DNA from: an uncultured Clostridium sp.
GTDB taxonomy: Bacteria; Bacillota; Clostridia; TANB77; CAG-508
Assembly (NCBI GenBank): GCA_947646915.1
Contig: CANSII010000013.1
Location: 1-40,897, forward strand
Length of the DNA: 40,897 nt
Direction: 5' to 3'
The translations under genes were made by a program, and so were the position numbers. The notes under the pieces are model-generated. The model saw nothing but the letters and a program-made list of their open reading frames with translations, was not told the DNA's origin and searched no databases. Of this stretch, positions 12,214-33,749 are shown piece after piece (position 1 is the stretch's first letter; the number at the start of each line of letters is the position of its first letter).

Positions 12214-12237
12214 ATTTAATTTATATACCTTTGTTTA

Positions 12238-13866: not shown

Positions 13867-13878
13867 ACTTGTAATTTT

Positions 13879-14478: not shown

Positions 14479-14520
14479 TTTTTCATCTCCTATTCTCTCT
14501 ACTTATTGTAATTTGTCGCT

Positions 14521-15623: not shown

Positions 15624-15671
15624 ATTATCTTCCCCCTTTTTCGTTTATATTATAATTCTAAATTTTCATAA

Positions 15672-15699
15672 AGGCAAGATGTCATTTGACACCTTGCCT
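15672..15699 (-). terminator. Stem-loop after the GNAT gene
   Basis: Near-perfect stem of 7 + 5 bp with one mismatch (AGGCAAG at 15672-15678 pairing with 15693-15699). It lies 10 bases beyond the stop of the GNAT gene. The T tract on the minus strand is weak (TTTATGAAAATTT). Confidence 0.6.
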
Positions 15700-15708
15700 C
15701 ATTACATA

Positions 15709-16227
15709 TCAGTTCTTAGAAAAGCCAGGATAGAGTTGTTCTGCTAAATCAAACATCTCATCAAAATTTCTTCTATGCCACAGATCATACACAGCAACCC
15801 AGTTACTCTGTTTCTCTATGTTGTGATAATTCTGACCAATCACATCAAAATGCAGTGACTCAAACATATGAACCACAATCTTGTTGTGAATACGGGTTTG
15901 GATATATGCATAGTCATATTTCTGTGCTTTAAGTTCTTCCAGAACTTGCAACAAAGCTTCCTTAGCATATCCTCTTTTCTGACAATTAGGAAACACATAG
16001 ATTCCATTAATCTTCGCACATTTAGCCGTTGAAAAATGAATCATCATGTATCCTACTGTTTCTCCATCGTCATTGAGTTCATAAATAACTCTTGTTCCAT
16101 CTTTGAATGTTGCTTCGTTCTTCTGAATCCATGTTGAGTAATATGGATACTCTCCTATAAATTCTTCAGTCAAACTCCGCAATCCCTCTTGAATTCTTTC
16201 ATATTCTTTCAGCTGTATGATTTTCAT
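15709..16227 (-). CDS. GNAT-family N-acetyltransferase
   Basis: 172 residues. The acetyl-CoA-binding core is visible: INGIYVFPNCQKRGYAKEAL, where the loop QKRGYAK is the Q/RxxGxG/A motif, followed by LLQVLEELKAQ and the strand DYAYIQTRIHN. The substrate is unknown. AAAGGAG sits 8 bases before the ATG. It follows the ASCH gene by 18 bases and both are visibly richer in G and C than their neighbours, suggesting they came in together. Confidence 0.88.
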   Translation of the reverse strand: MKIIQLKEYERIQEGLRSLTEEFIGEYPYYSTWIQKNEATFKDGTRVIYELNDDGETVGYMMIHFSTAKCAKINGIYVFPNCQKRGYAKEALLQVLEELKAQKYDYAYIQTRIHNKIVVHMFESLHFDVIGQNYHNIEKQSNWVAVYDLWHRRNFDEMFDLAEQLYPGFSKN

Positions 16228-16245
16228 CTTGCATGCTCCTTTCTG

Positions 16246-16647
16246 TTATTCGTCAGCATCATAATTCCAAATGTTCAAATGTCCTTTTGCAGGAATTGGT
16301 TCATCAAGAACTTCTACATCTTCCAAAATCCAAGCATATCTTCCTAAGCTATATTCTCCGCATAAGAATTCTTGCTTGTCTTTCTGAATTCTGTCCAAAA
16401 ATTCCTGGTCCATATATATACAATCTACCAATTTGCATTTGCATATAATGTTACCATATCCCATAGGAACATTAGGAATTAACTTCAGTAGTTCAATTGT
16501 GTGTTCATCACTCCTTTTGATTTTTTTGCTACTTGCATGGATATAAAGTTCACCTCTATAAGATGTTTTCCAACTTCTTGTTTCGATGACCTTTTTGCCC
16601 TCTTTGATAAGAGTTGCCCATGGTTCAATTAAGCTTAATACCTTCAT
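16246..16647 (-). CDS. ASCH-domain protein
   Basis: 133 residues from the ATG at 16647, with AAAGGTG 9 bases upstream; a GTG at 16659 is less likely. The ASCH fold is shown by LSLIEPWATLIKEGKKVIE, then TRSW and RGELYIHASS with the conserved G-K-K-x-I-E-x-R and the basic surface expected for RNA or nucleotide binding, and by GRYAWILEDV near the end. Some ASCH proteins hydrolyse N4-acetylcytidine. Being in one operon with an acetyltransferase makes an acetyl-nucleoside or RNA substrate worth considering, but this is inference. Confidence 0.85.
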   Translation of the reverse strand: MKVLSLIEPWATLIKEGKKVIETRSWKTSYRGELYIHASSKKIKRSDEHTIELLKLIPNVPMGYGNIICKCKLVDCIYMDQEFLDRIQKDKQEFLCGEYSLGRYAWILEDVEVLDEPIPAKGHLNIWNYDADE

Positions 16648-16767
16648 ACTTTCTGACACCTTTCTAATTGATATGCAATTCTTACATGAAAAAAACTTCC
16701 ATATTTGTATTATACTATATAATTCTTTTAATTCAACATTTACATAATATTTTTTGTAATAATCATA

Positions 16768-17745
16768 CTATGTAATATATTTTCTATGTGAATTTTTTAT
16801 ATTATTTTGATTTACCATAGCATATTCCATTGTAGTATCTATTTTTATATGTCCTAATAATTTTTGCACTTGTTCAACTGGCATTCCTTTATCAATATCC
16901 ATAGTAGCCAATGTTCTTCTAAATTTATGTGGATACACTTTATTTATATTTGCCTCCCTTCCTAAATTTCTAATTGCTATTTCAATTCCTGATATTCCTA
17001 ATCTTTTATAAGGTTTTATAAGCGATACAAATAGTGCTTCATTATTATCGGTTCTTGTTTCTAAATATTTTTTAATATACATTTTACTTTTTGCACTAAA
17101 GTAAACTTCCCTTTCACTATTTCCTTTTCCTAAAACAATACAACTTCTTTATTGAAAATTCATATCTGATATATTTAATCTAGTAAGTCCTCCGACTCTC
17201 ATACCAGTTGAAATTAATAGTTCTAATATTGCTAAATCTCTTACATTTGAGCAGGTATCTCTCAATTTTTCCAAATTTTCATCTGTTAATGTTGCTTTTA
17301 CTTTGTGAATCCTTCTAACTGGACTTTTAACAATATAATCTTCGTTTTCTAACCAAGCAAAGAAACTTGATATTGTCCTTCTTATATTATCAATTGTAAC
17401 CATACCAGCACTTGAATTGTTTTTATAATTTGATAGATAATTTCTTAATGTTTCTGTTGTAATTTCATTTATTGGAAGATTTATTTTATCTAGCATTTTG
17501 GTTATATTATCTTTATAATATTTTAATGTTCTAAGTGAACAGCCTTCAATTTCTTTTGATGATATAAATTTATTTAATATTTCTTCATTGTTCTTTTGTA
17601 TTTGTTGTTTTTGGTTTTGTTCTAATATTTCAATGTGATAATTTAAACATATTTCTGTAAGTATCTCTTTTAATTTTATTCTTTGGTTATTGTCTAAAAA
17701 TTCTCCTGTTGTATCAATTACTTTTTCAACAAATAATTCTCTCAT
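16768..17745 (-). pseudogene. Tyrosine recombinase with one in-frame stop
   Basis: Reads as one frame of 326 codons from the ATG at 17745 (AAGGAGGTAATTGTC upstream), interrupted only by TAA at 17151-17149. First part: core-binding SAM-like domain and the start of the catalytic domain with STGMRVGGLTRLN (first catalytic Arg). After the stop the same frame continues SCIVLGKGNSEREVYFSAKS, then HKFRRTLAT (H-x-x-R), LLGHIKIDTTMEY (His and Tyr nucleophile). All catalytic residues survive, so the stop is recent, or is read through. XerC/D-like mobile-element integrases are the nearest relatives. Confidence 0.75.
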
Positions 17746-18035
17746 GACAATTACCTCCTTACATTTTTCCATAATTTACAATATATAGAACTCTACCTAT
17801 ATTATACAATATTTAATTGACATAATAAAAGATGAGTATACTTTATATACCCACCTCAAAATTTATAATTTTTTTATTTAAATTTTAAAATTCAATCTCA
17901 GCAACAAATTACTATTTGTCTAACACAGATTATATCAAAAAATTCTATAAAAGTATATAAATTAATATAAACTGTTTTTTAATTGAATCAGTTTAAAAAA
18001 ATTCTCAAAAAATTTCCGACTTTTGGATATTGAAT

Positions 18036-18308
18036 GACATATACCTAGTAGAGAGTAAAATCGTAAATAAAAAAATTAAAAAAAATTTTTAGAAAATTAC
18101 CCCTTTTTTGAAAAACGATGGCATATACCTAGTGAAGAGTAAAATATAAAAAAATTAAAGAAAATTTTAAAAATTACCACTTTTTTGAAAAACGATGACA
18201 TATACCTAGTGGGGAGTAAAAATTTTAATTACAAAAAAGTTAAATTAATTTTTTACAAATTATACTTTTTGCAAATATAGGTGGCATTTACTTATTAGAA
18301 GAACAAAA
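18036..18308 (+). repeat. Four iteron-like direct repeats upstream of xis/int
   Basis: Three close copies of GRCATATACCTAGTRRRGAG (then TAAAA) start at 18036, 18120 and 18197, with a diverged fourth at 18283. Copies 2 and 3 are each preceded by TTTTTTGAAAAACGATG. Spacings are 84, 77 and 86 bases. The array fills most of the gene-free stretch 17746-18346, just before the excisionase start. Likely arm-type integrase or Xis binding sites, or a replication iteron set of the element. Confidence 0.75.
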
Positions 18309-18346
18309 TTTTACTCTTACTAAATCAAGAAAGGAGGAAATCTACA

Positions 18347-18556
18347 TTGACAACAAATGAAGAAAATACAAAATTAGGATTAACTGTAGATGAGGCAAGA
18401 GAAATGTTAGGTATAGGTAGAAATTTAATGTTGAAATTAGTTAAAGTAAAAGGTTTTCCAGCAGTTAGATTTAAAAGAAAAATAATCATTAATAAAGAAT
18501 TGTTACCAAAGTGGTTTGAGGAGAACTGTGGTGAGTATGGCGACTATGATTATTAA
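18347..18556 (+). CDS. xis: Excisionase / helix-turn-helix DNA-binding protein
   Basis: 69 residues. TTG start at 18347 with AAAGGAGG 8 bases upstream. LTVDEAREMLGIGRNLMLKL followed by RFKRKIIINKELLPKWFEEN is the MerR-like winged helix of Tn916-type excisionases (HTH_17). Such proteins bend DNA at the element ends and steer the integrase to excision. It lies 116 bases before the integrase gene and directly after the direct repeats it may bind. Confidence 0.85.
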   Translation: MTTNEENTKLGLTVDEAREMLGIGRNLMLKLVKVKGFPAVRFKRKIIINKELLPKWFEENCGEYGDYDY

Positions 18557-18672
18557 TAATTAGTAAAAAGGGCTGATTTCTTGTTTTAAACGTGATAAGA
18601 TATGTTTAGATATTAAGTTTTGTGCCCTTAAACTATTTATATTTTTTAGACTTATTTGGAAGGAGTTATTTA

Positions 18673-19995
18673 ATGGAAAAAATAAATAGACAAAGAGCAC
18701 CAAAAGGAACAGTTACAATAAGGAAAAAAGGAAATAGTTATGAGGCAAGAGTAACATTAGCTCTAAATTCAATTATGGAAGGAGTTGATAGGAATCCAAG
18801 ATTATCAAGAACAGCAAGAAGTGAACAAGAGGCAAGAAAAAGATTAGGAGAATTAATTACTGATGTATATTTTGATATTAAAAGGAATAGTACAAATCCT
18901 AATGTTAAAGTATTTACAGAAGAATGTTCATTAAAACTAAATAAGTTTACTGAATTTAATGAGGAAAAAGCTAAAAGGAAAATAGAAATACTAGCAGATG
19001 ATTATATTTTATTCCCAAATATAGAAAAGGAATGGCTTAATTGGAAAAAGAATCAAGTTAATCCTACTACCAATAAAACTATCAGTTTAAAAACTGTAGA
19101 AACTTACATAAATACAATTAAAAATCACGTTATGGTAGATTTTGAAAAATATCATGTTAGCGAAATTAGTAAAGACTTAGTAGAAAACTACATCAATGAG
19201 AAAAGACAGAAAACACCTAGACTTGCTAAAGATTTATTCTTGCTTATTAGAGCAGTATTAACTTATGCTAAAGATAAGAAAGGATTAATAAAAGAAGTTC
19301 CAAACTTTGATTTAAAGTTTCAAAAAAAGAAAAGAGCTAAGGCAGCAAAGGTATGCTATTTGCTAGAAGATAGGCAAAAAGTGTGGCTTGATGTATGCGA
19401 AGAAGATAAAAGACCTTTTGCTTTACTTTTTGCAACATTACTGCAAACAGGTATGCGACTAGAAGAAGGATGTGGTTTAAAATGGAAATCCGTTCACTTT
19501 AATCAAAATAAAATTAAAGTAGAAAATGCTTACAAAGATATTACCTTATATGATGACGAAATGAATATTACTGGACATATTATGACTGATGGAGATTTAA
19601 AAACTACAGAAAGCTATCGTAATATACCAATGACACCAAGATTAAAAGAAATGTTACTTAACCTAAAAAGAGAAAAAATGAATAATTTAAAATATGGACA
19701 AGAATGGGATAATAATGAATATGTATTTTTAAATACAATAGGAACACCTTATGTTCCAGAAAGATTAACAAAAAAGATTACAGAATTTATTAAAAAACAT
19801 AAATTAGAACACATGACAATTTATGGATTTAGGCATTCTTTTGCAACTTTAATGAGTGTAAAAGGTATGGACAAAGAAGTTTTACGAGAATTAATGGGAC
19901 ATGCTGAATTTGAAACTACAGATTTTTACTATATTCATGTATCAGAAGAACGAAAGAAAAAAGAATTTGAAAGAGTAAATTTTGAGGAATTTTAG
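18673..19995 (+). CDS. int: Tyrosine integrase of a Tn916-like or phage element
   Basis: 440 residues from the ATG at 18673 (GGAAGGAGTTATTTA upstream). N-terminal arm-binding domain (KGTVTIRKKGNSYEAR), SAM-like core-binding domain around residues 105-195, catalytic domain about 215-430 with Arg in LLQTGMRLEEGCGLKW, GFRHSFATLM, LMGHAEFETTDFYY and the Tyr nucleophile. All active residues are present, so it looks functional. It sits next to tRNA-Arg, its probable target. No cargo genes of an element can be recognised between the recombinase pseudogene and xis. Confidence 0.92.
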   Translation: MEKINRQRAPKGTVTIRKKGNSYEARVTLALNSIMEGVDRNPRLSRTARSEQEARKRLGELITDVYFDIKRNSTNPNVKVFTEECSLKLNKFTEFNEEKAKRKIEILADDYILFPNIEKEWLNWKKNQVNPTTNKTISLKTVETYINTIKNHVMVDFEKYHVSEISKDLVENYINEKRQKTPRLAKDLFLLIRAVLTYAKDKKGLIKEVPNFDLKFQKKKRAKAAKVCYLLEDRQKVWLDVCEEDKRPFALLFATLLQTGMRLEEGCGLKWKSVHFNQNKIKVENAYKDITLYDDEMNITGHIMTDGDLKTTESYRNIPMTPRLKEMLLNLKREKMNNLKYGQEWDNNEYVFLNTIGTPYVPERLTKKITEFIKKHKLEHMTIYGFRHSFATLMSVKGMDKEVLRELMGHAEFETTDFYYIHVSEERKKKEFERVNFEEF

Positions 19996-20061
19996 GGGAA
20001 AACAAAAAATGCTGAAAGCAAGTTTACACAAGTGAAACGATACTTTTTAAAGAAAAAGCCT

Positions 20062-20096
20062 CAAAAAAAAAGAGTTCTCAAACTAGCTTGAGAACT
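20062..20096 (-). terminator. Terminator of the tRNA-Arg transcript
   Basis: Nine-bp perfect stem AGTTCTCAA (20073-20081) with its complement at 20088-20096. On the minus strand it is followed by a run of nine T (CTTTTTTTTTGAGG). It lies 13 bases past the tRNA 3' end. Confidence 0.9.
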
Positions 20097-20109
20097 ATGA
20101 TTTACCAAA

Positions 20110-20186
20110 TGGTGTGCCTGGAGGGATTCGAACCCCCGATCTGCAAGTTCGTAGCCTGCCATTCTATCCAGCTAAACTACAGGCAC
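20110..20186 (-). tRNA. tRNA-Arg (anticodon ACG), CCA encoded
   Basis: Minus-strand cloverleaf: acceptor GTGCCTG pairing with CAGGCAC, anticodon stem GCAGG/CTTGC around loop CTACGAA (ACG), T arm GGGGG-TTCGAAT-CCCTC, discriminator A and an encoded CCA. The integrase gene is immediately beyond its 3' end, as expected for a tRNA used as attachment site. Confidence 0.95.
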
Positions 20187-21714: not shown

Positions 21715-22839
21715 TTACCGCAAAATTATACTAACATTCTTAACAGCTTTACCACTAGAAACCTCTAAAGAAACAGTATCTCCATCTTTCTTACTAAAGA
21801 TAAATTCTTTTAAATCATTCATCGTATTAAGTTTAACACCATCAATTGATAAAATAATATCACCTTCTTTTAAACCTGAACTACTAGCTGGACCATTTTT
21901 TATAATTTCTGCAATATAAATTCCTTGATTAAAGCTAATATTACTAGACAAATAAGGAATAACATTCTTATCATAAGCATAAACTCCAATAGTAGCTTGT
22001 TCAAATTTCCCATTATTTTTAAAACTCTCTATAACAGGTTTTACAACATTAACAGGAATTGCAAAGCCAATACCCTCTGCTGATGATATTTTAACAGTGT
22101 TTATACCAATCACTGTACCATTTGGATAAATTAATGGTCCTCCACTGTTTCCTGGATTTATAGTTGCATCTGTTTGTATTAAATCTGACATATAAGAAAT
22201 ATTTTGTTTATCTTCTAATTTTATTGTTCTATCCTTTGCACTTATAATACCTGAAGTAACAGTCCTTCTAAACTCAAAGCCTATTGGATTTCCAATTGCA
22301 TATACTGTTTCTCCAACTCTTATTTTACTTGAATCCCCTAGACTTATAGAATTTAAATTTGTTGCATTAATTTTTGTAATAGATAAATCTAAATCTTTAT
22401 CACTCCACATTACAGTTCCATCATACTTCTTCCCGTTTTCTAATGTAATATAACATGTACTATATTTTTCTCCTGTTACATGTTCATTACTCAATATATA
22501 TCCATTATCTGTAACAATTATACCTGTTCCTAGGCCTAAAGAATCTTCGTTAGAACTAGAAAATATTGAACTTCCATTATTTTTTAATTTTGAAATTCCA
22601 ACTACACATTTCATTGTTTCCTCTAACACATCTGCAACATTTTCGCTTTTTTCAGTAACATCTTCCACAGTTTGTTCATTAACTGTGGATTTTACTCTTT
22701 CTGCAACATATTGATTTTCGTTTATTTCTATTTGTGAATATGTACTATATAAATATATTGCTGTTACTAAAAATATCACTGATATTAAAGATACAATTAT
22801 TACTTTTCTCAAATTTCTGTTTTTCTTTCTCATTCTCAT
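21715..22839 (-). CDS. htrA: HtrA/DegP-type membrane-anchored serine protease with PDZ domain
   Basis: 374 residues from the ATG at 22839; AGAGGAG fits it with 8 bases spacing, and the GTG at 22848 is too close. Cytoplasmic basic tail, one membrane span (VIIVSLISVIFLVTAIYLY), then a trypsin-like domain with the triad His in LSNEHVTG, Asp in DLDLSI and Ser in PGNSGGPL, then a C-terminal PDZ domain (GIYIAEIIKNGPASSSGLKE). Such proteins degrade misfolded envelope proteins. It is transcribed away from the NRPS gene with a shared 380-base intergenic region. Confidence 0.95.
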   Translation of the reverse strand: MRMRKKNRNLRKVIIVSLISVIFLVTAIYLYSTYSQIEINENQYVAERVKSTVNEQTVEDVTEKSENVADVLEETMKCVVGISKLKNNGSSIFSSSNEDSLGLGTGIIVTDNGYILSNEHVTGEKYSTCYITLENGKKYDGTVMWSDKDLDLSITKINATNLNSISLGDSSKIRVGETVYAIGNPIGFEFRRTVTSGIISAKDRTIKLEDKQNISYMSDLIQTDATINPGNSGGPLIYPNGTVIGINTVKISSAEGIGFAIPVNVVKPVIESFKNNGKFEQATIGVYAYDKNVIPYLSSNISFNQGIYIAEIIKNGPASSSGLKEGDIILSIDGVKLNTMNDLKEFIFSKKDGDTVSLEVSSGKAVKNVSIILR

Positions 22840-23132
22840 ATATATCACTCCTCTTAATCATTTTTTACATTTATTATTTTTTTAAACAAATTTTTAGTTA
22901 TATAATTATTTTTTTGATCAAAACTTTTTAAACACTTGAAATAATTAGACAATATAATATTTATAATATTAAAATCATCACTGACCTAAGTAATTAGGTA
23001 ATATAACTAAAGGGGGAATAGTCAAATATTTTTATTTATTTACAAGATTTAGTATACATAATTAATTATAATAGTATTAATTTATAAATATATTATTCTT
23101 TAAACAAATTTTTACTTTTTTTTCCAAAATTC

Positions 23133-23222: not shown

Positions 23223-26200
23223 ATGAAAGAGACAAAATTATATGAACTAACAAACCCCCAAAAATCAATATGGTATATGGAAGAATATTATAAAGGAACA
23301 GCAATAAATAACATATGTGGAAGTCTAACTATTAGTGAGGAAATTAACTTAAAAAAATTCATTCAATCCATAAAAATATTTGTAAAACAAAATAAAAGTT
23401 TCAGTATAAAATTAAATTTAGAAGAAGGAACACCAAAACAATACTTTAGCAATTTAGAAGATTTTAATATAGAAATTATAAATATAAACTCCCAAGAAGA
23501 TATACAAAAACTTGAAGAAGAAATGGTTAATAAACCATTCAATATAATTAACTCATTACTATTTGAATTTAAAGTATTTAAACTACCAAATGGAAGTGGA
23601 GGTTTTGTTGTAAATTGTCATCATCTTATTTCTGATGCTTGTACATTTGCATTAATAGGAAATGAAATTGCAAAAATTTATTATAACTTATTAAATAATA
23701 TAAATGAAGAATATTATTTTCCATCATATTTAGAATATATTAATTCTGAAAACGAATATTTAACAAGCGATAAATTTAAAAAAGATCAAGAATATTGGAC
23801 TAATCAATTTTCAACTATACCTGATATAGCCTCTATTCCCGCTTCTTTTAAAAATGTCTCTAGTTATAGTGCAATTTCCAAAAGAGCATCATTTATATTA
23901 CAAAAAAATACTTTAGAAGATATAAGAAATTACTGTTTAAAGCATAAAATTTCAATATTTAACTTTTTCATGGCAATATACTCTTTATATATTAGTAGAA
24001 TATGTAATTTAGATGATATTGTTATAGGAACACCAATTTTAAATAGAACAAATTTTAAAGAAAAGACTACAACTGGTATGTTTATTAGTAATGTTCCACT
24101 TAAAATTAATATTAATAATAACTCAACATTTTTGGAACATGCTTCAAAAATTGCCAAGGATTCTTTGTCAATGCTTAGACATCAAAAATATCCTTATCAA
24201 TTTTTATTAGAAAATTTAAGGAAACAAAATTCTTCTGTTCCAAATTTGTATGACAATTTAATTTCATACCAGATTACTAAAGCAAATGATGGGTCTGTCA
24301 ATTTACCTTATAAAGTACATTGGACTAGCCCTGATTATATCTCTAGTAGTTTAAATATTCATTTACATGATAATAATGATACAGGCGATTTAATTATGTC
24401 TTATGATTATCTAGTTGATAAATTTTCTTTTAATGATATTTCTGCTACTAATGATAGAATTTTAACTGTTATTAATCAAGTATTAACTAATTCAGATATT
24501 TGCTTAAGTGATATTGAAATTGTTACAGATGAAGAAAAAAATAAAATTTTATATGAATTTAATAATACAAATGTTGATTATCCAAAACATAAAACTATTG
24601 TTGATTTATTTGAAGAACAAGTAGAAAAAACACCTGATAATATTGCTGTTGTTTTTAAAGATCAAAAATTAACCTATAGAGAATTAAATGAAAAAGCTAA
24701 CAGTTTAGCAAATTATATAATTAAAAATGATTTAAAATCCACTCCAATAATAGGAATTCTATTAGATAGATCAATAGAAATGATAATTTGTATAATTGCA
24801 GTATTAAAAAGTGGTAAAGCATATATTCCAATTGATCCAAATTATCCTACTGATAGAATTAATTATATGTTAAAAGATTCTAATTGTAATTTAATTTTAT
24901 CCTCAGAAAAACTATATACAAATTTAAATTTATCTATAAACTTTATTAATGTAGAGTTAAACAATAACAAAGTATATGATAATTATGCAAAAAATCTAAA
25001 TATGAAAATAAATCATGATAGCTTATCTTATATAATATATACATCTGGTTCAACAGGGAAACCTAAAGGAGTAATGCTAACTCATAAAGGAATATTTAAT
25101 TTAGTTAATTATTGTAACAATTATATAAAATACCTAAAAGATAATATATATAGAACAATTGTATCAGTTACTACTATAAGTTTTGATATTTTCTTTTTTG
25201 AAAGTATAATCTCTTTACAAAAAGGATTAAAATTAGTTATTGCAGATCAAGATCAACAAACAATTCCTAGACTATTAATAGAGTTAATAGAAAAAGAAAA
25301 TATAGAAATAATCCAAACAACACCATCAAGGATGAAATTAATACTTGATAACATAAAAAATGAAGAAAATCTAAATAGTTTAAAATATATAGTATTAGCT
25401 GGAGAACAATTTCCTATCACACTTGCCAAAAGATTAAAAAGCATAGAAAACATAATATTATATAATGGGTATGGACCTAGTGAAACTACAGTATTTTCGA
25501 CTCTTACAGATGTAACAAATTTTGAAAACATGACTATTGGTAAACCTTTAGACAATACTCAAATATATATATTAGATAAAAATATGAATTTATGCCCTAT
25601 TGGAACTCCTGGAGAAATTTGTATTTCTGGTAATGGAGTAGGAAGGGGATATATAAACAAACCTGATCTAACAAATAAAAGCTTTGTAAAAAATAAATTT
25701 AATAATAACAGTTTATTATATAAAACTGGTGATTTAGGTTTTTATAATGAAAATGGTATAATAACTTGTCTTGGGAGAATTGATAATCAAATAAAAATAA
25801 GAGGTCTAAGAATAGAACTAGAAGAAATAGAAAAGGCAATTCTAGAACTAAACGAAATACAAAATTGTGTAGTTGCAAAAAAACAATTTGATGATGGTCA
25901 TGAATTTTTATGTGCATATTATATTAAAAATAAATCTATTGAAGAGAACTCCATTAGAAGCCATTTACAGAAAAAACTTACTAATTATATGATACCTCAA
26001 TACTTTATTGAACTTGATAAAATGCCATATACTCCTAATGGTAAAATTGATAAAAAATTATTACCTATGCCTAAAATAAAAATTAATGAGAAAATCATAT
26101 TGCCAACAAATAAAACAGAAAAAGCTCTAAGAGAAATATTTGAAGAAGTATTGCACTTAGAAAACATAAGTATTGAAGATAACTTTTTTACATTAGGAGG

Positions 26201-29200
26201 AGATTCATTATCTGCAATAAATTTAGCAACGAAAATATATAATAAATTAAATATACAAATAGGAATTAAATATATATTTGATTATCCAACTATAAAATCC
26301 CTTGCGTTCATGCTAAATAACATAAATTATTCCAAAAAAATAATAAAAACAGAAAAAAATGACTATTATCCAACATCATCTGCACAAAGAAGAATTTATT
26401 ATAGTTGCCAAGTAGCTGGGAAAACATCAATTGTATACAATATACCTGGAGGAATAATATTAGAAAAAGTACCTGATATAGACAAACTTGAAAATGCATT
26501 TAATGAGATAATAAAAAGACATGAATCATTTAGAACTTATTTTGAATTAGTTGATGGAAATGTAGTACAAAAAATTATAGATAATGTAGATTTTCAATTA
26601 AAAATATCTAATGCAAATTACAAAGATTTGGATAATTGTTTTAAATCTTTTGTAAAACCATTTAACTTAAATACTGCACCTTTAATTAGAGCAGAATTAG
26701 TAAAATTTGAAAATGATAAATGTTTATTACTTATAGACATGCACCATATAATATCAGATGGAACATCATTAGAAATATTAGTAAAAGATTTATGTTCTTT
26801 ATATAATAATGAGAAAACAGATAATGTTTCATTAAATTACAAAGACTTTGCTGTTTGGGAAAGTGATCATTTAAAAAATAATAGATTTGAGGAAGATAAA
26901 AAATATTGGATAAATCAATTTAATGATGAAGTTCCTATATTAAATTTACCAACTAACTATTCAAGACCTTCTGAAAAATCATTTAAAGGATCAAAAATAT
27001 ACAAAACACTTGATGCTAATCTTACTACACAAATACATAACTTAAGCAAAAAATTAGGAGTAACACCATATATGATTTTACTATCATCTTATTATATTTT
27101 GCTTTCAAAATATTCATCTCAAGATGATATAGTTGTTGGATCTCCTATTATTGGAAGGGATAATCCTCAACTTCTAAATATAATTGGAATGTTTGTTAAT
27201 ACACTTCCATTACGTGCCAAAATTAATGATGATTTAAAATATATTGACTTTTTAAAAGATATAAAAACATTATGTTTAAACAGTTTTGAACATCAAACAT
27301 ATCCTTTAGATGAATTAATAAATAATTTAGATTTACCACGAGATAATAGTAGAAATCCTCTTTTTGATGTATTATTTACATATCAAAATAATGGTTTAAA
27401 AAACATACATTTAGATTGCATCAAATCTCAATATTACATTCCTGATACTAAAATATCAAAATTTGATTTATCTTTAGAAGTAATACCAAATAATGATACA
27501 ATGAATTTAAATTTTGAATATTGTACTAAATTATTTAATAATGATTTTATTGAAATTTTATCAGAACACTATATAAATATATTAAAAATTGTTACACAAA
27601 ATGAGTATACACAAATATCAAATATTGATATGTTATTTGAAGAAGAAAAACGTAGAATATTATTTGACTTTAATAATAACAACCTAGAATATAATCAAGA
27701 AAAAAATTTAATTGATTTATTTAAAGAAATAGTATCAAAATATCCTAATAATATAGCTGTTCAATTAGGAGAAAAAAGTATAACTTATACAGAATTAGAT
27801 GAAAAATCAAATACATTAGCATTAGAAATGCAAAAAATGGGAATTAAAAAAGGCGATGTTGTAGGTGTTTGTATAAATAAATCTATTGAATTAGTTATAT
27901 CTATATGGGCAATACTTAAAAATTCTTGTGTTTATATGCCAATGTATGTTGGATATCCAAAAGATAGACTAGAATATATGTTAAAAAACAGTAATTGTAA
28001 ACTTCTAATTGTAAACTCTACCATGAAAAATGTATTAGATTTTGAATGTAAAATTTACAATATTAGAGGCTTTGAGAAAATAGGAAATACAAATCAATTA
28101 GATTTACCATATAAAATATCTTCTACAGATTTAGCTTATATAATATATACATCAGGTTCTACAGGAAAACCAAAAGGTGTAAAAATAATGCACAAAAATT
28201 TAATTAACTATGTTCTTTCATTCAATGAATTGTTTGAAAATATTTCTTCTAAAGACAGATTTTTATCTTCAACAAACATTTCATTCGATGTTAGTATTTG
28301 GGAATTATTTTTATCAATTCTAAATGGTGCAACATTAGTTTTATATATAGAAGAAATAATAAATAATATATTATCATATTCAAGAGCAATATTAGATTAT
28401 AAAATTACAACATTATATATACCACCAAATATTTTAGAAGAAGTTTATACAATGTTAAAAAATTCAAAAGAAGTAAAAATTAATAAAATATTAGTTGGTG
28501 TAGAGCCTATTAAAAAAAGTACTTTAAATAAATATTATAATTTAAATCCAAATTTAAAAATTGTAAATGGATATGGTCCTACAGAAACTACTATTTGTTC
28601 AACTGCTCTAAAATATGTAAAAGATGAAACTAATGATAATATAGTTTCAATAGGAAAACCTATACACAACACTAATATTTATATACTTAATAAAAATATG
28701 CAAGTTCTTCCTATTGGTGTAACAGGAGAATTATGTATTTCAGGTAATGGCGTTGGAAATGGATATATAAATAATAAATTAGAAACTGATAAACATTTTG
28801 TAAATAATCCTTTTGATAATACATCAAAATTATATAAAACAGGTGATTTAGCAAAATGGAATATTGATGGTACAATAAATTATATGACAAGAAAAGATAC
28901 TCAAGTTAAATTTTCTGGATATAGAATAGAACTAAAAGAAATTGATTATACAGTTATGCAATATCCTTATATAAATAAATGTTTAACAACAATATATACT
29001 ACAGGAAAAAAATCTTATTTAGTAACCTATTTTACATCAGATAGAAAAATAAATACATCAGATTTAACAACATATTTACAAACTAAACTTGCATTTTATA
29101 TGGTTCCAAGTACATATATTCAATTAGATGCCTTTCCACTTACTGTTAATGGAAAAATTGATAGTAAAAAATTACCTACTCCTATAATAAAATCTAAAAA

Positions 29201-30674
29201 TAATTATGTAGCACCTACAACAGAACTAGAAAAAATGATTTGTAAAATATGGGAAAATTTATTTGGAATAAAACATATAGGAATTGATGATAATTTCTTT
29301 GATTTAGGAGGGGATTCACTATCTGCAATAAGATTTCAGGTAGAAGCTATAAATCAAAACTTAAATATATCTTATGGAGACATATTTAAATATCCAAGAA
29401 TTCGATTATTAGCTCAAAAAGCTAATAATTCATTACCTATAGAAGATAAAACAGAAGAAAATTATAATTATACAAAAATAAATGAATTATTATCAAATAA
29501 TAATGTCGATAATATTCCAAAAACAGTTAAATTTGGACATATTGGAAATATATTATTAACAGGAGCTACTGGATTTTTAGGTGCCCACATACTAGATAAC
29601 TATTTATCTAATACTGAAAAAGGTATTGCATATTGCTTTGTAAGAAGAAAAAATTTAGGAAATCCTGAAGAAAGATTGCAAAAAACTTTAGAATTTTACT
29701 TTGGAAATAAATATACAAAAATGTTTGGAACACGAATTAAGGTTATAATTGCTGATATAACACTTGATAACTTTAGTTTAAATGCTTCAGATTACGAAAA
29801 TTTATCAAAGAAAATAGATATTATTATAAATAGTGCAGCACTTGTGAAACATTATGGAGAATATGAACAATTCAACTCTATAAATGTTCTTGGAACTAAA
29901 AGATTAATTGAATTTTGCAAAAAATTCAATAAAAAACTTTACCATATTTCAACAACAAGTGTTTCAGGTATGGGAATTCCAGAAAATAATATAGAGAAAG
30001 CTTCTGAAGTTACATATTTCAGTGAAAAAGATTTGTATAGAAATCAAAATCTAAACAACACTTATATAAAAACAAAATTTGAAGCAGAAAGATTAATATT
30101 AGAAAATATTAATTTTGGTTTAAATGCTTGTATTTTTAGAATGGGTAATATTTCTAATAGATACTCTGATGCAAAATTTCAAATTAATTTATCTGAAAAT
30201 GCTTTTGTAAATAGAATAAAATCTATTTTAAAATTACAAGTTTTACAAGATGGATTTTTACAACATAGTACTGAATTTGCCCCTGTAGATTTATGTGCTG
30301 ATGCAATAATTAGAATTATTAAATCTAATCCAAAATTTACTGTATTTCATATATTTAATAGTAAATTAATTTCATTTAAAAACCTTGTTGAATATATTAA
30401 TGAAATTGGTATAAAATTAGATTTTGTTTCTAATTCTGAATTTTCTAATAAAGTTAAACAATTTCTATCTGATAAAAACTTAAAAAATGAAATTTCAGGA
30501 ATAATTACAGAGTTAAATAAAGATAAAATTTTTGATTTAAATGCTAATATTTTATTAAATAGCAATTTCTCTAATACATATTTACAAAAATTAGGATTTA
30601 AATGGACAAATATAAATAAAAATTATATTGTAAAATATTTTAATTATTTTAAAAATATTAATTATTTTGATTAA
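23223..30674 (+). CDS. Two-module NRPS, C-A-T-C-A-T-R, reductive release
   Basis: 2483 residues. C1 (about 1-440; HHLISD at 133-138); A1 (about 455-955; TSGSTGKPKG at 607-616, GYGPSETT, YKTGDL, NGKID); T1 (Ser995 in LGGDS); C2 (about 1045-1480; HHIISD at 1174-1179); A2 (about 1490-1990; TSGSTGKPKG from 1643, GYGPTETT); T2 (Ser2032); thioester reductase R (about 2105-2483; NAD(P)H loop GATGFLG at 2114-2120, Tyr2281/Lys2285). All catalytic motifs are intact. The first C domain suggests the first amino acid is acylated; the R domain should release a dipeptide aldehyde, or an alcohol. Gut Clostridia are known to use such enzymes to make protease-inhibiting peptide aldehydes. No phosphopantetheinyl transferase or exporter is nearby. 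GGAG precedes the ATG. The kinase gene follows after 15 bases. Confidence 0.96.
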   Translation: MKETKLYELTNPQKSIWYMEEYYKGTAINNICGSLTISEEINLKKFIQSIKIFVKQNKSFSIKLNLEEGTPKQYFSNLEDFNIEIININSQEDIQKLEEEMVNKPFNIINSLLFEFKVFKLPNGSGGFVVNCHHLISDACTFALIGNEIAKIYYNLLNNINEEYYFPSYLEYINSENEYLTSDKFKKDQEYWTNQFSTIPDIASIPASFKNVSSYSAISKRASFILQKNTLEDIRNYCLKHKISIFNFFMAIYSLYISRICNLDDIVIGTPILNRTNFKEKTTTGMFISNVPLKININNNSTFLEHASKIAKDSLSMLRHQKYPYQFLLENLRKQNSSVPNLYDNLISYQITKANDGSVNLPYKVHWTSPDYISSSLNIHLHDNNDTGDLIMSYDYLVDKFSFNDISATNDRILTVINQVLTNSDICLSDIEIVTDEEKNKILYEFNNTNVDYPKHKTIVDLFEEQVEKTPDNIAVVFKDQKLTYRELNEKANSLANYIIKNDLKSTPIIGILLDRSIEMIICIIAVLKSGKAYIPIDPNYPTDRINYMLKDSNCNLILSSEKLYTNLNLSINFINVELNNNKVYDNYAKNLNMKINHDSLSYIIYTSGSTGKPKGVMLTHKGIFNLVNYCNNYIKYLKDNIYRTIVSVTTISFDIFFFESIISLQKGLKLVIADQDQQTIPRLLIELIEKENIEIIQTTPSRMKLILDNIKNEENLNSLKYIVLAGEQFPITLAKRLKSIENIILYNGYGPSETTVFSTLTDVTNFENMTIGKPLDNTQIYILDKNMNLCPIGTPGEICISGNGVGRGYINKPDLTNKSFVKNKFNNNSLLYKTGDLGFYNENGIITCLGRIDNQIKIRGLRIELEEIEKAILELNEIQNCVVAKKQFDDGHEFLCAYYIKNKSIEENSIRSHLQKKLTNYMIPQYFIELDKMPYTPNGKIDKKLLPMPKIKINEKIILPTNKTEKALREIFEEVLHLENISIEDNFFTLGGDSLSAINLATKIYNKLNIQIGIKYIFDYPTIKSLAFMLNNINYSKKIIKTEKNDYYPTSSAQRRIYYSCQVAGKTSIVYNIPGGIILEKVPDIDKLENAFNEIIKRHESFRTYFELVDGNVVQKIIDNVDFQLKISNANYKDLDNCFKSFVKPFNLNTAPLIRAELVKFENDKCLLLIDMHHIISDGTSLEILVKDLCSLYNNEKTDNVSLNYKDFAVWESDHLKNNRFEEDKKYWINQFNDEVPILNLPTNYSRPSEKSFKGSKIYKTLDANLTTQIHNLSKKLGVTPYMILLSSYYILLSKYSSQDDIVVGSPIIGRDNPQLLNIIGMFVNTLPLRAKINDDLKYIDFLKDIKTLCLNSFEHQTYPLDELINNLDLPRDNSRNPLFDVLFTYQNNGLKNIHLDCIKSQYYIPDTKISKFDLSLEVIPNNDTMNLNFEYCTKLFNNDFIEILSEHYINILKIVTQNEYTQISNIDMLFEEEKRRILFDFNNNNLEYNQEKNLIDLFKEIVSKYPNNIAVQLGEKSITYTELDEKSNTLALEMQKMGIKKGDVVGVCINKSIELVISIWAILKNSCVYMPMYVGYPKDRLEYMLKNSNCKLLIVNSTMKNVLDFECKIYNIRGFEKIGNTNQLDLPYKISSTDLAYIIYTSGSTGKPKGVKIMHKNLINYVLSFNELFENISSKDRFLSSTNISFDVSIWELFLSILNGATLVLYIEEIINNILSYSRAILDYKITTLYIPPNILEEVYTMLKNSKEVKINKILVGVEPIKKSTLNKYYNLNPNLKIVNGYGPTETTICSTALKYVKDETNDNIVSIGKPIHNTNIYILNKNMQVLPIGVTGELCISGNGVGNGYINNKLETDKHFVNNPFDNTSKLYKTGDLAKWNIDGTINYMTRKDTQVKFSGYRIELKEIDYTVMQYPYINKCLTTIYTTGKKSYLVTYFTSDRKINTSDLTTYLQTKLAFYMVPSTYIQLDAFPLTVNGKIDSKKLPTPIIKSKNNYVAPTTELEKMICKIWENLFGIKHIGIDDNFFDLGGDSLSAIRFQVEAINQNLNISYGDIFKYPRIRLLAQKANNSLPIEDKTEENYNYTKINELLSNNNVDNIPKTVKFGHIGNILLTGATGFLGAHILDNYLSNTEKGIAYCFVRRKNLGNPEERLQKTLEFYFGNKYTKMFGTRIKVIIADITLDNFSLNASDYENLSKKIDIIINSAALVKHYGEYEQFNSINVLGTKRLIEFCKKFNKKLYHISTTSVSGMGIPENNIEKASEVTYFSEKDLYRNQNLNNTYIKTKFEAERLILENINFGLNACIFRMGNISNRYSDAKFQINLSENAFVNRIKSILKLQVLQDGFLQHSTEFAPVDLCADAIIRIIKSNPKFTVFHIFNSKLISFKNLVEYINEIGIKLDFVSNSEFSNKVKQFLSDKNLKNEISGIITELNKDKIFDLNANILLNSNFSNTYLQKLGFKWTNINKNYIVKYFNYFKNINYFD

Positions 30675-30689
30675 CAAGGAGGTTCTCAT

Positions 30690-32501
30690 ATGCTTACTGA
30701 TATTTCAACATTTATAATATTACTATTATCTTTTCTAATTCTTTTTGTTTTGTCAATATTAGTTGCAAAAAAGACAAATAGAAGTCAATTAAGAACTTGT
30801 TTCTTATTGATTCTCTTCTGCCTAATAATTTGTTGCAGTGGTTTATTAGCACAAATATTATTATCAAAAACATTAGGAATTGACCCTATTTATTTTGATT
30901 ATATAGTCTATATTGGTACTTGTTTTTTACCTATAAGCCTTTTATTTACAGGATTAGTATTTGCAAAAACAAAAATATATTTTAAAAAAATATATCTCTT
31001 AATTATTATAATACCAATTATTTCTTTATTTATATTATGGACAAACGATTTTCATCACTTATTCTATAAAGAATATTCTGTTAATATTAATAATACAATT
31101 TTTGGACCTTACTTTAAAATACATTCTATAAATTCATATTCTTTATTATTTATAGGATTATATTATTTAATAAAATTTTCTATTAAAAATGCTGGCTTCT
31201 TTTCAAAACAATCATTATTATTAATTTTAGGAGCATTAGTTCCACTAACCATAAATTTATTTGGAACATTAGGAATTATACCAATGACAATATATATTAC
31301 TCCAATCTCCTTTACTATATCAGCATTACTATTTGCTTTAGCAATATTTAAATTTAAATTTTTAACAACAACACCAATAGCATTACAAAAAATAGTAGAC
31401 AGAATGTCTGATGGATATTTAGTAATAGATGAAAATAATAAAATAACAGACTTTAACCAAACAATATTAATCATGTTTAACTTAAAAGAAGCATACATTA
31501 GAAACATAAATATATTCAATTTATTACAAGAAAACAAAAATATCTCACTAGATATAGAAAAGTTAAAACAAGCACTATCAATAGTAAAAAAATCAATAAA
31601 AACACAATCATATGAAGAGTATATAGAAACATTAAAAAAACATTTCAGAATAGAAATAAGCAGTTTAAACAACAATACATCATTTATAGGAACACTAATC
31701 TTATTCAAAGATATAACACAACATATTGAAGATATGAAAACAATAAAAGAAAATCAAGAAACCTTAATGGAAAGTGAACGTTTAGCATCTCTTGGACAAT
31801 TAATAGGAGGAATAGCACACAACTTAAAAACACCTATAATGTCAATATCAGGAGCAACAGAAGGTCTATCAGACCTAGTAAAAGAATATGACTCATCAAT
31901 AGATGACCCACAAGTAAATAGTCAAGATCACCATGATATAGCTAATGATATGACAAAATGGATAGAAAAAATTAAAAATTATACAGAATATATGTCAGAC
32001 ATTATAACAGCAGTAAAAGGACAAGCTGTAACATTATCAGAAACAGACAATGTAACATTTGACTTAGAAGAACTCGTTAAACGAGTTGATATATTAATGA
32101 AACATGAACTAAAAAACTCTATTACATATCTAAATGTGAAAATGTTAGCGAATGAACATACAAAAATACGAGGAGATGTTAATAGTTTAGTTCAAGTTAT
32201 AAATAATATGATTTCAAATTCAATACAAGCTTATAATGGAAAAACAGAACAAAATATAGATTTAATTTTAAAACAAGAAGAAAATAATTTAATCATTTCT
32301 GTAAAAGATTATGGTTTAGGACTACCAGAAAAGGTAAAGCAAAAGTTATTTAAAGAGATGATTACTACAAAAGGGAAAAATGGTACAGGATTAGGTTTAT
32401 ACATGTCTTATTCTACTATAAAAGCTCATTTTAATGGTAATATAACTTTTGAATCTGAGGAAAACAAAGGTACTACTTTTAATATAACATTACCTCTATA
32501 A
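30690..32501 (+). CDS. 7TM sensor histidine kinase linked to the NRPS
   Basis: 603 residues. Residues about 1-225 hold seven hydrophobic helices with the HHLFYKEYSV signature of the HisKA_7TM input domain; then a PAS domain (about 230-350, SDGYLVIDENNKITDFNQ); HisKA with the phospho-acceptor His377 in GGIAHNLKTP; and a HATPase_c domain (NMISNSIQAY N box, DYGLGLP G1, GTGLGLYM G2). A strong AAGGAGG site and only 15 bases from the NRPS stop indicate one operon. 7TM kinases sense membrane-soluble or extracellular small molecules, so the NRPS product is a natural candidate ligand (inference). A terminator follows. Confidence 0.95.
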   Translation: MLTDISTFIILLLSFLILFVLSILVAKKTNRSQLRTCFLLILFCLIICCSGLLAQILLSKTLGIDPIYFDYIVYIGTCFLPISLLFTGLVFAKTKIYFKKIYLLIIIIPIISLFILWTNDFHHLFYKEYSVNINNTIFGPYFKIHSINSYSLLFIGLYYLIKFSIKNAGFFSKQSLLLILGALVPLTINLFGTLGIIPMTIYITPISFTISALLFALAIFKFKFLTTTPIALQKIVDRMSDGYLVIDENNKITDFNQTILIMFNLKEAYIRNINIFNLLQENKNISLDIEKLKQALSIVKKSIKTQSYEEYIETLKKHFRIEISSLNNNTSFIGTLILFKDITQHIEDMKTIKENQETLMESERLASLGQLIGGIAHNLKTPIMSISGATEGLSDLVKEYDSSIDDPQVNSQDHHDIANDMTKWIEKIKNYTEYMSDIITAVKGQAVTLSETDNVTFDLEELVKRVDILMKHELKNSITYLNVKMLANEHTKIRGDVNSLVQVINNMISNSIQAYNGKTEQNIDLILKQEENNLIISVKDYGLGLPEKVKQKLFKEMITTKGKNGTGLGLYMSYSTIKAHFNGNITFESEENKGTTFNITLPL

Positions 32502-32509
32502 AATAAAAA

Positions 32510-32546
32510 TGTGACAAAGGGGGCGTCCCTTTTTGGCACATTTTTT
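32510..32546 (+). terminator. Terminator of the NRPS-kinase operon
   Basis: Stem TGTGACAAAGGG pairing with CCCTTTTTGGCACA around a short loop, then TTTTTT. It belongs to the same GTGACAAAGGGGG family as the hairpin at 40573-40604. Confidence 0.85.
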
Positions 32547-32603
32547 ATTTAAAATTACTTGCTTTTTATAATTTTTATTAATATAATAAATACATACTTA
32601 TTA

Positions 32604-32639
32604 CAATTTACAGCTTATATATTTTAATATTGTAAATTG
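32604..32639. promoter_or_regulatory. Inverted repeat upstream of the response regulator
   Basis: CAATTTACA at 32604-32612 and TGTAAATTG at 32631-32639, an exact 9-bp inverted repeat with an 18-base AT-rich centre, 28 bases before the regulator ATG. It could be an operator, or a leader hairpin. Confidence 0.4.
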
Positions 32640-32666
32640 CAATATAACTTATTATGAGGTGAGTTT

Positions 32667-33749
32667 ATGAGAAAAGGTCTAAAAGACTTTCAAGAAAATG
32701 GAAATATAAACGATTATAATTTAAATAATAATTTTAAAATAATGGCAGTAGATGATGAAGAAGGAATAGTTGACTCATTATCAATCTTTTTAAAACGTTC
32801 AGGATATAACTATACAGGAGTAACAAATCCAGTTTTAGCTATTGATAAATTAAAAAAAGAACATTATGACCTTTTGGTATTAGACTTTATAATGACACCA
32901 TATCATGGAGATCAGGTTGTAGAAGAAATTAGAAAATTTGATAAAGAATTATACATATTATTATTAACTGGACATAAAGACTTGGCTCCACCATTAGAAA
33001 CAATCAGAAGATTAGATATACAAGGATATTGCGAAAAAAGTGATAAATTTGATCAATTATTATTATTAATTGAATCAGGCATAAAATCAATTAAACAGAT
33101 GAAAGAAATCAAAAAAATAAATTCAGAATTAAAAGATACATTTGACAAATTAGAAAAGGCATATTTAGGCAGTATCCAAACATTAAGATATACAGTTGAA
33201 GCAAAAGACCCATACACAAGAGGACATTCAGATAGAGTATCTGCCTATTCAGTTTTAATAGGAAAACATTTAGGTTTATCAGAAAATGACTTAAAAATAC
33301 TAGAAATTGGAGGGCTTTTCCATGATATTGGAAAAATAGGAGTTCCTGATTCAATTTTAAAAAAAGAAGGGAAACTAACAGATGATGAATATTCAGAGAT
33401 AAAAAATCATCCTTCAATAGGTGCCCATATATTATCTACAGCAGAAATTTTTAAAGATATTATTCCTATTGTAAAACATCATCATGAAAAATATGATGGT
33501 AATGGTTACCCTTCAAGATTAAAAGGAAATGATATTCCTTATTTAGCAAGAATTTCTGCAATTGCTGATACCTTTGATGCTATGACTTCCAAAAGGACTT
33601 ATAGAAATGCCTTACCTTTAGATGTTGTTGTTGCAGAAATAGAAAGGTGTAAAGGCACTCAATTTGACCCTAATTTAGCAGATACTTTTTTAAATATAAT
33701 AAAAAATAATTATAATGAAATTGAAGAAATTCAAGAAAAATATAAATAA
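32667..33749 (+). CDS. REC-HD-GYP response regulator (cyclic-di-GMP phosphodiesterase)
   Basis: 360 residues. N-terminal receiver domain (about 22-145; acidic pocket DDEE, phospho-acceptor Asp73 in VLDFIM), a coiled linker, then an HD-GYP domain (about 165-345) with HDIGKIG (His219, Asp220), HHHEKYDGNGYP (GYP at 280-282) and ISAIADTFDAMTSKR. HD-GYP enzymes hydrolyse cyclic di-GMP. There is no DNA-binding output, so the signal goes to second messenger levels, not directly to promoters. AGGTGAGTTT gives the start. It lies 165 bases after the kinase, behind a terminator, so it has its own promoter. Pairing with the kinase is inferred from adjacency. Confidence 0.93.
   Translation: MRKGLKDFQENGNINDYNLNNNFKIMAVDDEEGIVDSLSIFLKRSGYNYTGVTNPVLAIDKLKKEHYDLLVLDFIMTPYHGDQVVEEIRKFDKELYILLLTGHKDLAPPLETIRRLDIQGYCEKSDKFDQLLLLIESGIKSIKQMKEIKKINSELKDTFDKLEKAYLGSIQTLRYTVEAKDPYTRGHSDRVSAYSVLIGKHLGLSENDLKILEIGGLFHDIGKIGVPDSILKKEGKLTDDEYSEIKNHPSIGAHILSTAEIFKDIIPIVKHHHEKYDGNGYPSRLKGNDIPYLARISAIADTFDAMTSKRTYRNALPLDVVVAEIERCKGTQFDPNLADTFLNIIKNNYNEIEEIQEKYK

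What the first reader, a model, noticed from the sequence alone, without database searches (positions are those of the whole stretch)
23223..33749. NRPS for a reductively released dipeptide in an operon with a 7TM histidine kinase, followed by an HD-GYP regulator
The NRPS is complete (C-A-T-C-A-T-R, all catalytic motifs) and the kinase follows by 15 bases behind a strong ribosome site, then a REC-HD-GYP protein. Peptide aldehydes from similar gut Clostridia NRPSs inhibit proteases. A built-in membrane sensor and a cyclic-di-GMP output suggest the product is also a self-sensed signal that changes surface or biofilm behaviour. I know of no described system with this exact gene set.
Basis: partly seen in the sequence, partly recalled or inferred. 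Interest (0 to 1): 0.85.

Follow-up and report, generated by a model that had tools for sequence, protein, structure and literature searches.

The report
NRPS and kinase sensor swapped together
In gut Clostridia, a small peptide-making enzyme and the sensor half of the kinase next to it appear to be exchanged between species as one cassette while the rest of the signalling chain stays put, which is what one expects if the bacteria sense their own product as a private chemical signal.

Summary
In detail: a complete C-A-T-C-A-T-R NRPS (23223-30674), a 7TM-PAS histidine kinase 15 nt downstream (30690-32501), and a catalytically intact REC-HD-GYP gene behind a terminator-like hairpin (32667-33749). 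The order is conserved. In the genus (35 genomes) kinase core and REC-HD-GYP occur in the same 25, all with an NRPS. Of 80 GTDB loci with the kinase core, 77 have an NRPS R domain upstream; the other three lie at contig ends. New: NRPS and kinase sensor are exchanged as one cassette, with breakpoints about 23-52 residues before the phospho-histidine, while kinase core and HD-GYP stay with the species. In 62 further loci, R-domain groups and sensor groups agree almost exactly (1 discordant pair of 946; 0 of 153); kinase-core groups agree poorly. About 15 NRPS+sensor types were seen. This is the mosaic pattern of comQXPA pherotypes, with an NRPS as synthase. Likeliest reading: a self-sensed, NRPS-made N-acyl (di)peptide aldehyde controls a c-di-GMP phosphodiesterase. 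Ligand, phosphotransfer and output are inferred; a biofilm output is unsupported.

The parts
23223..30674 (+). NRPS, 2483 aa, C-A-T-C-A-T-R (reductive release)
23235..24551 (+). first condensation domain (HHLISDA; best match of the lone C domain in nearly all monomodular relatives, so probably acyl-starter)
24609..26063 (+). adenylation domain A1; motif-derived code DIFQVAGVFK (positions recalled)
26124..26306 (+). carrier domain T1
26358..27662 (+). second condensation domain (HHIISDG)
27693..29102 (+). adenylation domain A2 (limits approximate, as cut in the script); motif-derived code DVWYIVGICK (positions recalled)
29178..29402 (+). carrier domain T2 (limits approximate, as cut in the script)
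29520..30671 (+). reductase (R) domain with GATGFLGAH and YIKTK
30676..30682 (+). AAGGAGG ribosome-binding site of the kinase
30690..32501 (+). histidine kinase, 603 aa
30717..31376 (+). HisKA_7TM sensor; travels with the NRPS
31383..31730 (+). PAS domain; lies on the NRPS side of the exchange breakpoint
31743..32498 (+). kinase core (H-box IGGIAHNLKTP, phospho-His codon 31818-31820); follows the species
32515..32535 (+). terminator-like hairpin between kinase and HD-GYP gene
32667..33749 (+). REC-HD-GYP response regulator, 360 aa, catalytic motifs intact; follows the species

Best explanation
The locus is a self-sensing (quorum- or kin-sensing-like) system. The NRPS makes an N-acyl dipeptide released reductively as an aldehyde (or an alcohol or cyclised derivative). 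The product is detected by the polytopic membrane sensor of the kinase encoded 15 nt downstream. The conserved kinase core passes the signal to the neighbouring REC-HD-GYP phosphodiesterase, which changes c-di-GMP. NRPS and sensor are a matched synthase-receptor pair that species exchange as one cassette in front of a fixed signalling core, giving about 15 signal types among the close relatives sampled. Shown here: gene order, co-occurrence, co-grouping of NRPS and sensor, cassette breakpoints in a few close pairs, intact catalytic motifs. Inferred: the product's chemistry, that it is the ligand, phosphotransfer to the HD-GYP protein, c-di-GMP as output.
For: Co-occurrence: in 35 genomes of the genus, kinase core and >=70% identical REC-HD-GYP occur in the same 25, all 25 with Condensation and R domains. 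Adjacency: an R domain lies upstream in 77 of 80 GTDB loci, the other 3 at contig ends. Trees (fewest changes of sensor type, 7TM or long, on the best tree): rpoB 8 (37 rows, quick tree), HD-GYP 7 (33 rows; 7TM as one clade rejected, p 8.6e-36), kinase core 5 (33 rows without f5 and G043; rejected, p 1.5e-6), NRPS R domain 1 (40 rows; all 15 7TM rows, three families, form one clade, 97/95; the genus as one clade rejected, p 8.6e-5). Within the long type, 17 genomes: Mantel sensor~R 0.58, partial 0.55 given core and HD-GYP, against core~R 0.24. 62 other loci: R/sensor ARI 0.97 (44 long) and 1.0 (18 7TM); core/R ARI 0.08-0.35. Sister species G001 and G008 share both flanks at 88-94% nt identity but carry very different NRPS+sensor cassettes; homology resumes 70 nt before the His codon; in four other pairs run it resumes 122-157 nt before it. 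Mean identity for 227 different-group pairs is 12-38% up to 21 residues before the His and 82-100% from -20 to +9. Readable adenylation codes agree within four long-type groups.
Against: No ligand, transcript or phosphotransfer data. The 80 named loci are metagenome bins by their titles. Four genus genomes carry NRPS sequence without kinase core or HD-GYP orthologue: G014, whose NRPS lies inside a long contig, G018, and G026 and G028, whose NRPS contigs end close by. In the six f5 genomes with an NRPS, the 7TM kinase has another core class and no adjacent HD-GYP; two more f5 genomes have a related kinase without NRPS. Outside the order, f43 has a 7TM kinase plus REC-HD-GYP without NRPS in the 4.8 kb upstream, and f56, f30, f44 and f25 loci carry the kinase core without NRPS. 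In the 7TM type the core also correlates with R (0.50) and with the sensor (0.50). Adenylation codes in the 7TM groups are not cleanly group-specific. The c-di-GMP network in this genome looks minimal. One PF01648 match was found in this genome and not examined, so NRPS activation is unproven.
Confidence: 0.72

Rival explanations
1. Autoregulated bioactive metabolite: the NRPS product is mainly a protease inhibitor or antimicrobial, and the kinase senses it to tune its production or self-protection, as in lantibiotic clusters (recalled). The sensor then co-varies with the product for regulatory reasons.
For: Related gut NRPSs are reported to make dipeptide aldehydes, with protease inhibition named in the titles of the cited works (passages of PMC12327764). 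Sensor and NRPS co-vary.
Against: The linked output is an HD-GYP phosphodiesterase, not a DNA-binding regulator or transporter. I did not search the loci for export or resistance genes, so this rival is only weakly tested.
Confidence: 0.17
2. Plain linkage: NRPS and sensor co-vary only because they are neighbours on one recombination tract; the kinase senses something else.
For: NRPS and kinase genes lie within -47 to +80 nt of each other in all but two of the 41 loci tabulated (G003, sensor frame disrupted; G040, kinase broken).
Against: The kinase core, which adjoins the sensor, co-groups poorly with the R domain (ARI at most 0.44, 23 genomes), whereas the first C domain, kilobases upstream, co-groups with the sensor (ARI 0.89, 16 long-type genomes). 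In the five pairs run, tracts end inside the kinase gene at nearly the same place, not between genes.
Confidence: 0.08
3. Metagenome assembly artefact: conserved kinase cores caused misjoins between species.
For: The 80 named loci are metagenome bins by their titles.
Against: In four of five pairs run the swap is two-sided: homologous flanks both upstream and downstream (the upstream flank was not shared in G024/G008). The same NRPS/sensor pairings recur in bins from several projects. The gene order also stands on contigs of about 0.5 Mb (G037, L229).
Confidence: 0.03

Closest known systems
comQXPA quorum sensing of Bacillus (ComP/ComA; also agr, recalled)
   Same: Linked signal synthase, polytopic sensor kinase and response regulator; variable N-terminal sensor domain against a conserved cytoplasmic kinase domain (ComP: passages of PMC4008528).
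   Different: Signal made by an NRPS, not from a ribosomal prepeptide; two unrelated sensor types; response regulator is an HD-GYP protein, not a transcription factor.
Gut reductive NRPSs (Guo et al. 2017, not held; ruminopeptin, Schneider and Balskus 2018, not read; both known only through passages of PMC12327764)
   Same: NRPS gene clusters of gut bacteria reported to give dipeptide aldehydes; the C-A-T-(C-A-T)-R layout is recalled.
   Different: 'Histidine kinase' occurs 0 times in PMC12327764; whether the original papers mention linked kinases could not be checked.
AusA aureusimine/phevalin synthetase (NF047350)
   Same: Best NCBIfam hit, reductive dimodular NRPS.
   Different: 1555 bits against a cut-off of 2500; AusA has an A-T-C-A-T-R layout without an N-terminal C domain (recalled).
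Pyrazinone autoinducers of Klebsiella oxytoca (PMC11480411, abstract start and passages)
   Same: Peptide-aldehyde-derived (leupeptin) signals proposed as autoinducers.
   Different: 'Histidine kinase' occurs 0 times in the main text of that paper.

Membership tests
comQXPA/agr-type two-component quorum sensing | signal synthase, membrane sensor kinase and response regulator linked | tested here: met
   (linkage shown; that the NRPS is the signal synthase is inferred)
comQXPA/agr-type two-component quorum sensing | synthase and sensor co-vary while kinase core and regulator stay conserved | tested here: met
comQXPA/agr-type two-component quorum sensing | ribosomal prepeptide gene between processing enzyme and kinase | tested here: not met
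   only 15 nt between NRPS and kinase
comQXPA/agr-type two-component quorum sensing | exogenous product activates the cognate kinase only | not testable with these tools
   needs experiment
Reductive gut NRPS (peptide aldehyde) family | C-A-T-C-A-T-R with intact motifs | tested here: met
Reductive gut NRPS (peptide aldehyde) family | aldehyde product | not testable with these tools
   needs expression and mass spectrometry
AusA aureusimine synthetase | NCBIfam NF047350 score at or above 2500 bits | tested here: not met
   1555.4 bits
HD-GYP c-di-GMP phosphodiesterase response regulator | REC plus HDxGK and HHExxDGxGYP | tested here: met
HD-GYP c-di-GMP phosphodiesterase response regulator | c-di-GMP signalling present in the genome | tested here: inconclusive
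   one REC-GGDDF protein, one degenerate GGDEF protein, no PilZ and no c-di-GMP-I riboswitch found in G000; riboswitch found in 6 of the 34 other genus genomes

The most novel reading that the evidence does not exclude
Clostridia have a widespread kind of quorum or kin sensing in which NRPSs are pheromone synthases: about 15 pherotypes among close relatives alone, each a matched NRPS and membrane sensor exchanged as one cassette in front of a fixed kinase core and c-di-GMP phosphodiesterase. On this reading the gut 'protease-inhibitor' peptide aldehydes are first of all private signals between bacteria.
Probability: 0.55. Interest if true: 0.93.

Novelty: new variant of a known kind. Interest (0 to 1): 0.86.

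Why it matters
Reductive NRPSs of gut bacteria are reported to make dipeptide aldehydes that have been discussed as protease inhibitors. If NRPS and kinase sensor are a matched pair, these compounds are bacterial signals, their receptors are identified, and the question of what the metabolites are for becomes directly testable with a ready set of matched and mismatched pairs. It would also add an NRPS-based class to pherotype signalling and give uncultured Clostridia a defined communication system.

Tried and rejected
Stand-alone pathway or chance neighbours: rejected, order conserved. Sensor type simply tracking the number of NRPS modules: not exact. G012 and five f5 genomes pair 7TM with a monomodular NRPS, and in G043 only one A domain was found; the sensor tracks the R-domain lineage instead. 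The independent-pairs test of 7TM against bimodular had only 3 pairs on starred branches and cannot reach significance. On the core tree, supported branches alone force only 2 changes for the genus's 7TM rows, against 4 on the best tree.

Results that weaken or blur the co-grouping: in the first set with both sensor types pooled (23 genomes) R/sensor agreement is ARI 0.79 with 6 discordant pairs of 253, all within the 7TM type at 44-53% identity; pooled rank correlations are weak and alike (sensor~R 0.26, sensor~first C 0.22, sensor~core 0.18), as expected when two non-homologous sensors are mixed. In one search I used a 55% sensor threshold for 7TM clusters and 50% for the rest; the count of discordant pairs used 50/50. 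Mantel tests do not correct for phylogeny; in the long type sensor~core 0.24, sensor~HD-GYP 0.26 and sensor~rpoB 0.32 are also positive, and in the six 7TM genomes tested the partial correlation is 0.43 with p 0.08. The 62 loci include near-copies of each other and of first-set loci and are not phylogenetically independent.

The c-di-GMP-II riboswitch search was silent everywhere, controls included, so it shows nothing; the c-di-GMP-I search also had silent controls but rang in 11 of 55 genomes, with filters that lose weak matches. Adenylation codes came from a crude motif script with recalled positions; many domains gave no code and no substrate was assigned; G000 and G003 differ in A1, A2 codes are alike across two 7TM groups, and G013 and G029 share a code. 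Rows dropped before the 41-genome table: G002 (broken NRPS and kinase), the second partial locus of G006, G014/G018/G026/G028 (no kinase), G046/G054 (kinase without NRPS). rpoB was available for 37 of 41; G043 has no R match and is not in the R tree. In one search, 71 of 80 loci had full kinase plus R and 62 were not in the first set.
Full report
Observation. The three genes are as described. The NRPS is C-A-T-C-A-T-R; its best NCBIfam hit is AusA, below cut-off. The kinase starts 15 nt after the NRPS stop behind AAGGAGG. A terminator-like hairpin lies between kinase and HD-GYP gene, so 'operon' probably applies to the first two genes only. H-box, HDxGK and HHExxDGxGYP are intact.

Conservation. 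In 55 genomes of the genus and order, 49 have a kinase match and 54 an HD-GYP match at the thresholds used, many of them distant. Taking the kinase core and a >=70% identical HD-GYP protein, the genus (35 genomes) has both in the same 25; all 25 have Condensation and R domains. Four more (G014, G018, G026, G028) have NRPS sequence without the kinase core. The remaining six have no Condensation match and neither kinase core nor close HD-GYP orthologue, though three of them have weaker HD-GYP matches (49-61%). Reading the loci, 41 genomes show NRPS followed by kinase, within -47 to +80 nt except G003 (sensor frame disrupted) and G040 (kinase broken). In 30 of 41 the REC-HD-GYP gene follows on the same strand and contig; in G004 and G010 it is on another contig, in G040 it follows the broken kinase, and in the two f2 and six f5 genomes it is not adjacent.

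An R domain lies upstream in 77 (in five of these the kinase frame is short); the other three lie at contig ends. An HD-GYP gene lies downstream in 73; five of the other seven are at contig ends, L204 and L211 are not. Among 391 genomes of the class, 56 match the kinase-core profile. Of 20 such loci read outside the order, 9 have an NRPS upstream and REC-HD-GYP downstream: five with an R match (f41, f77, f88, f65, f17), four without (f86, f11; one f86 NRPS ends in a thioesterase, one f11 NRPS in nothing Pfam knows). L259 is cut by its contig end. f43 has 7TM kinase and REC-HD-GYP without NRPS in the 4.8 kb upstream (L268), and the f56, f30, f44 and f25 loci show no NRPS.

Two sensors on one core. 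Kinases of the genus share a core at 64-95% identity but carry one of two unrelated sensors: HisKA_7TM plus PAS (about 600 aa), or a longer one (662-696 aa in the genus). In the three long sensors examined, five or six hydrophobic segments precede an extracellular-looking stretch, another segment and HAMP-like similarity. All 25 long-type rows of the 41 have a monomodular NRPS (some split or cut). In f1-f4, 7TM goes with a bimodular NRPS except in G012 and, unclear, G043.

The sensor follows the NRPS. Fewest changes of sensor type on the best tree: rpoB 8 (37 rows), HD-GYP 7 (33), kinase core 5 (33), R domain 1 (40). One clade of 7TM rows is rejected for core (p 1.5e-6) and HD-GYP (p 8.6e-36); one clade of the genus is rejected for R (p 8.6e-5). 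Within the long type of the genus (17 genomes) sensors are 21-35% identical between groups and 58-95% within, and the groups match those of the R domain: G022 and G030 have cores 88% identical but sensors 27% and R domains 39%, whereas G022 and G016 have cores 70%, sensors 58% and R domains 53%. Mantel: sensor~R 0.58, sensor~C 0.64, sensor~A 0.57; sensor~core 0.24, sensor~HD-GYP 0.26, sensor~rpoB 0.32, core~R 0.24; core~HD-GYP 0.55, core~rpoB 0.64; partial sensor~R given core and HD-GYP 0.55, p 0.001.

Second set. On 62 loci not in the first set (44 long, 18 7TM; some near-copies), R and sensor groups agree at ARI 0.97 and 1.0, with 1 discordant pair of 946 and 0 of 153; core against R gives ARI 0.08-0.35. 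In the long type sensor~R is 0.65, sensor~core -0.00; in the 7TM type sensor~R is 0.72 but sensor~core and core~R are both 0.50. Among long-type pairs, the 15 printed pairs (list cut at 15) with cores at least 87% identical and R under 50% have R 31-42% and sensors 23-31%; in the 7TM type there was no such pair. The R domain gives 10 groups in the long type and 5 in the 7TM type.

Breakpoints. G001 and G008 are sister species by rpoB. Their loci align at 88-94% nt identity upstream to about 220-255 nt before the NRPS start and again from 70 nt before the His codon onward; in between lie an 8.7-kb bimodular-7TM cassette and a 5.8-kb monomodular-long cassette with only patches of 64-74% identity. 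Four other pairs were run: homology resumes 122 (G022/G030), 150 (G011/G021), 157 (G010/G004) and 151 nt (G024/G008) before the His codon; an upstream flank is shared in the first three, in G022/G030 reaching about 160 nt into the NRPS, but not in G024/G008. Over 227 different-group pairs (cross-type pairs included), identity is 12-38% up to 21 residues before the His and 82-100% from -20 to +9; in 26 same-group pairs it rises only from 48-86% to 85-100%. Linkage alone does not explain this: the core adjoins the sensor yet co-groups poorly with the NRPS, while the first C domain, kilobases away, co-groups with the sensor.

Mechanism. Polymorphic synthase and sensor in front of a conserved kinase core and regulator is the pattern of ComP (PMC4008528, passages). 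I infer that the NRPS product is the ligand. The N-terminal C domain, the closest of the window's two to the lone C of nearly all monomodular relatives, suggests N-acylation; the R domain suggests an aldehyde. Output: the HD-GYP protein correlates with the kinase core (Mantel 0.55 and 0.69 in the long type, 0.39 in the 18 7TM loci), consistent with a cognate pair. In this genome I found one REC-GGDDF protein, one degenerate GGDEF protein, a second HD-GYP protein, no PilZ and no c-di-GMP-I riboswitch; 6 of the 34 other genus genomes have that riboswitch. c-di-GMP output is therefore plausible but unproven, and biofilm control is a guess.

Literature. Searches for gut aldehyde NRPS (15 of 192 papers listed), NRPS with histidine kinase and HD-GYP, NRPS with sensor kinase and quorum sensing, related wordings, NRPS with pherotype and HisKA_7TM listed no paper that, from titles and abstract starts, describes this system. 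Passages were read in PMC12327764, PMC11480411 and PMC4008528 only. The library lacks most subscription papers, including Guo et al. 2017, so priority cannot be claimed firmly.

Noticed in passing
window 4628-20186: A tyrosine integrase (18622-19995) sits beside tRNA-Arg (20110-20186) with a run of mostly minus-strand ORFs (4628-17772), which may be an integrated element.
   Followed up: no
window 21715-22848: An HtrA-type serine protease gene is divergent from the NRPS here; in 13 other genus genomes the divergent neighbour is instead an AMP-binding ligase, about 575 aa where complete (Pfam on one).
   Followed up: partly
L133 806-1588; L134 848-1590: c-di-GMP-I riboswitches in two genus genomes precede membrane-anchored-looking proteins of 223 and 209 aa that look alike by eye, a possible output of c-di-GMP in the genus.
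   Followed up: partly
L095 3963-14314: G043 has a kinase-linked NRPS without an R match and with a different middle part, followed by a response regulator without HD-GYP.
   Followed up: partly
L261, L262, L269, L270: Family f56 carries several kinases with this core, some in tandem, one with dCache_1 beside an ABC-2 transporter gene, no NRPS seen in the stretches read.
   Followed up: partly
G018:C2:80388-81731; G035:C27:104590-104883: Open frames of 24585 and 13756 aa were reported; they may be runs of N rather than giant genes.
   Followed up: no
L074 8562-10535; L075: G045 has a second kinase of the same core class, on the other strand, between its kinase and HD-GYP gene; G006 has a second, partial 7TM-type locus besides its long-type one.
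   Followed up: no
G000:C31:7221-7559: Only one PF01648 (phosphopantetheinyl transferase) match was found in this genome, in a 399-aa open frame; whether it can activate the NRPS is unknown.
   Followed up: no
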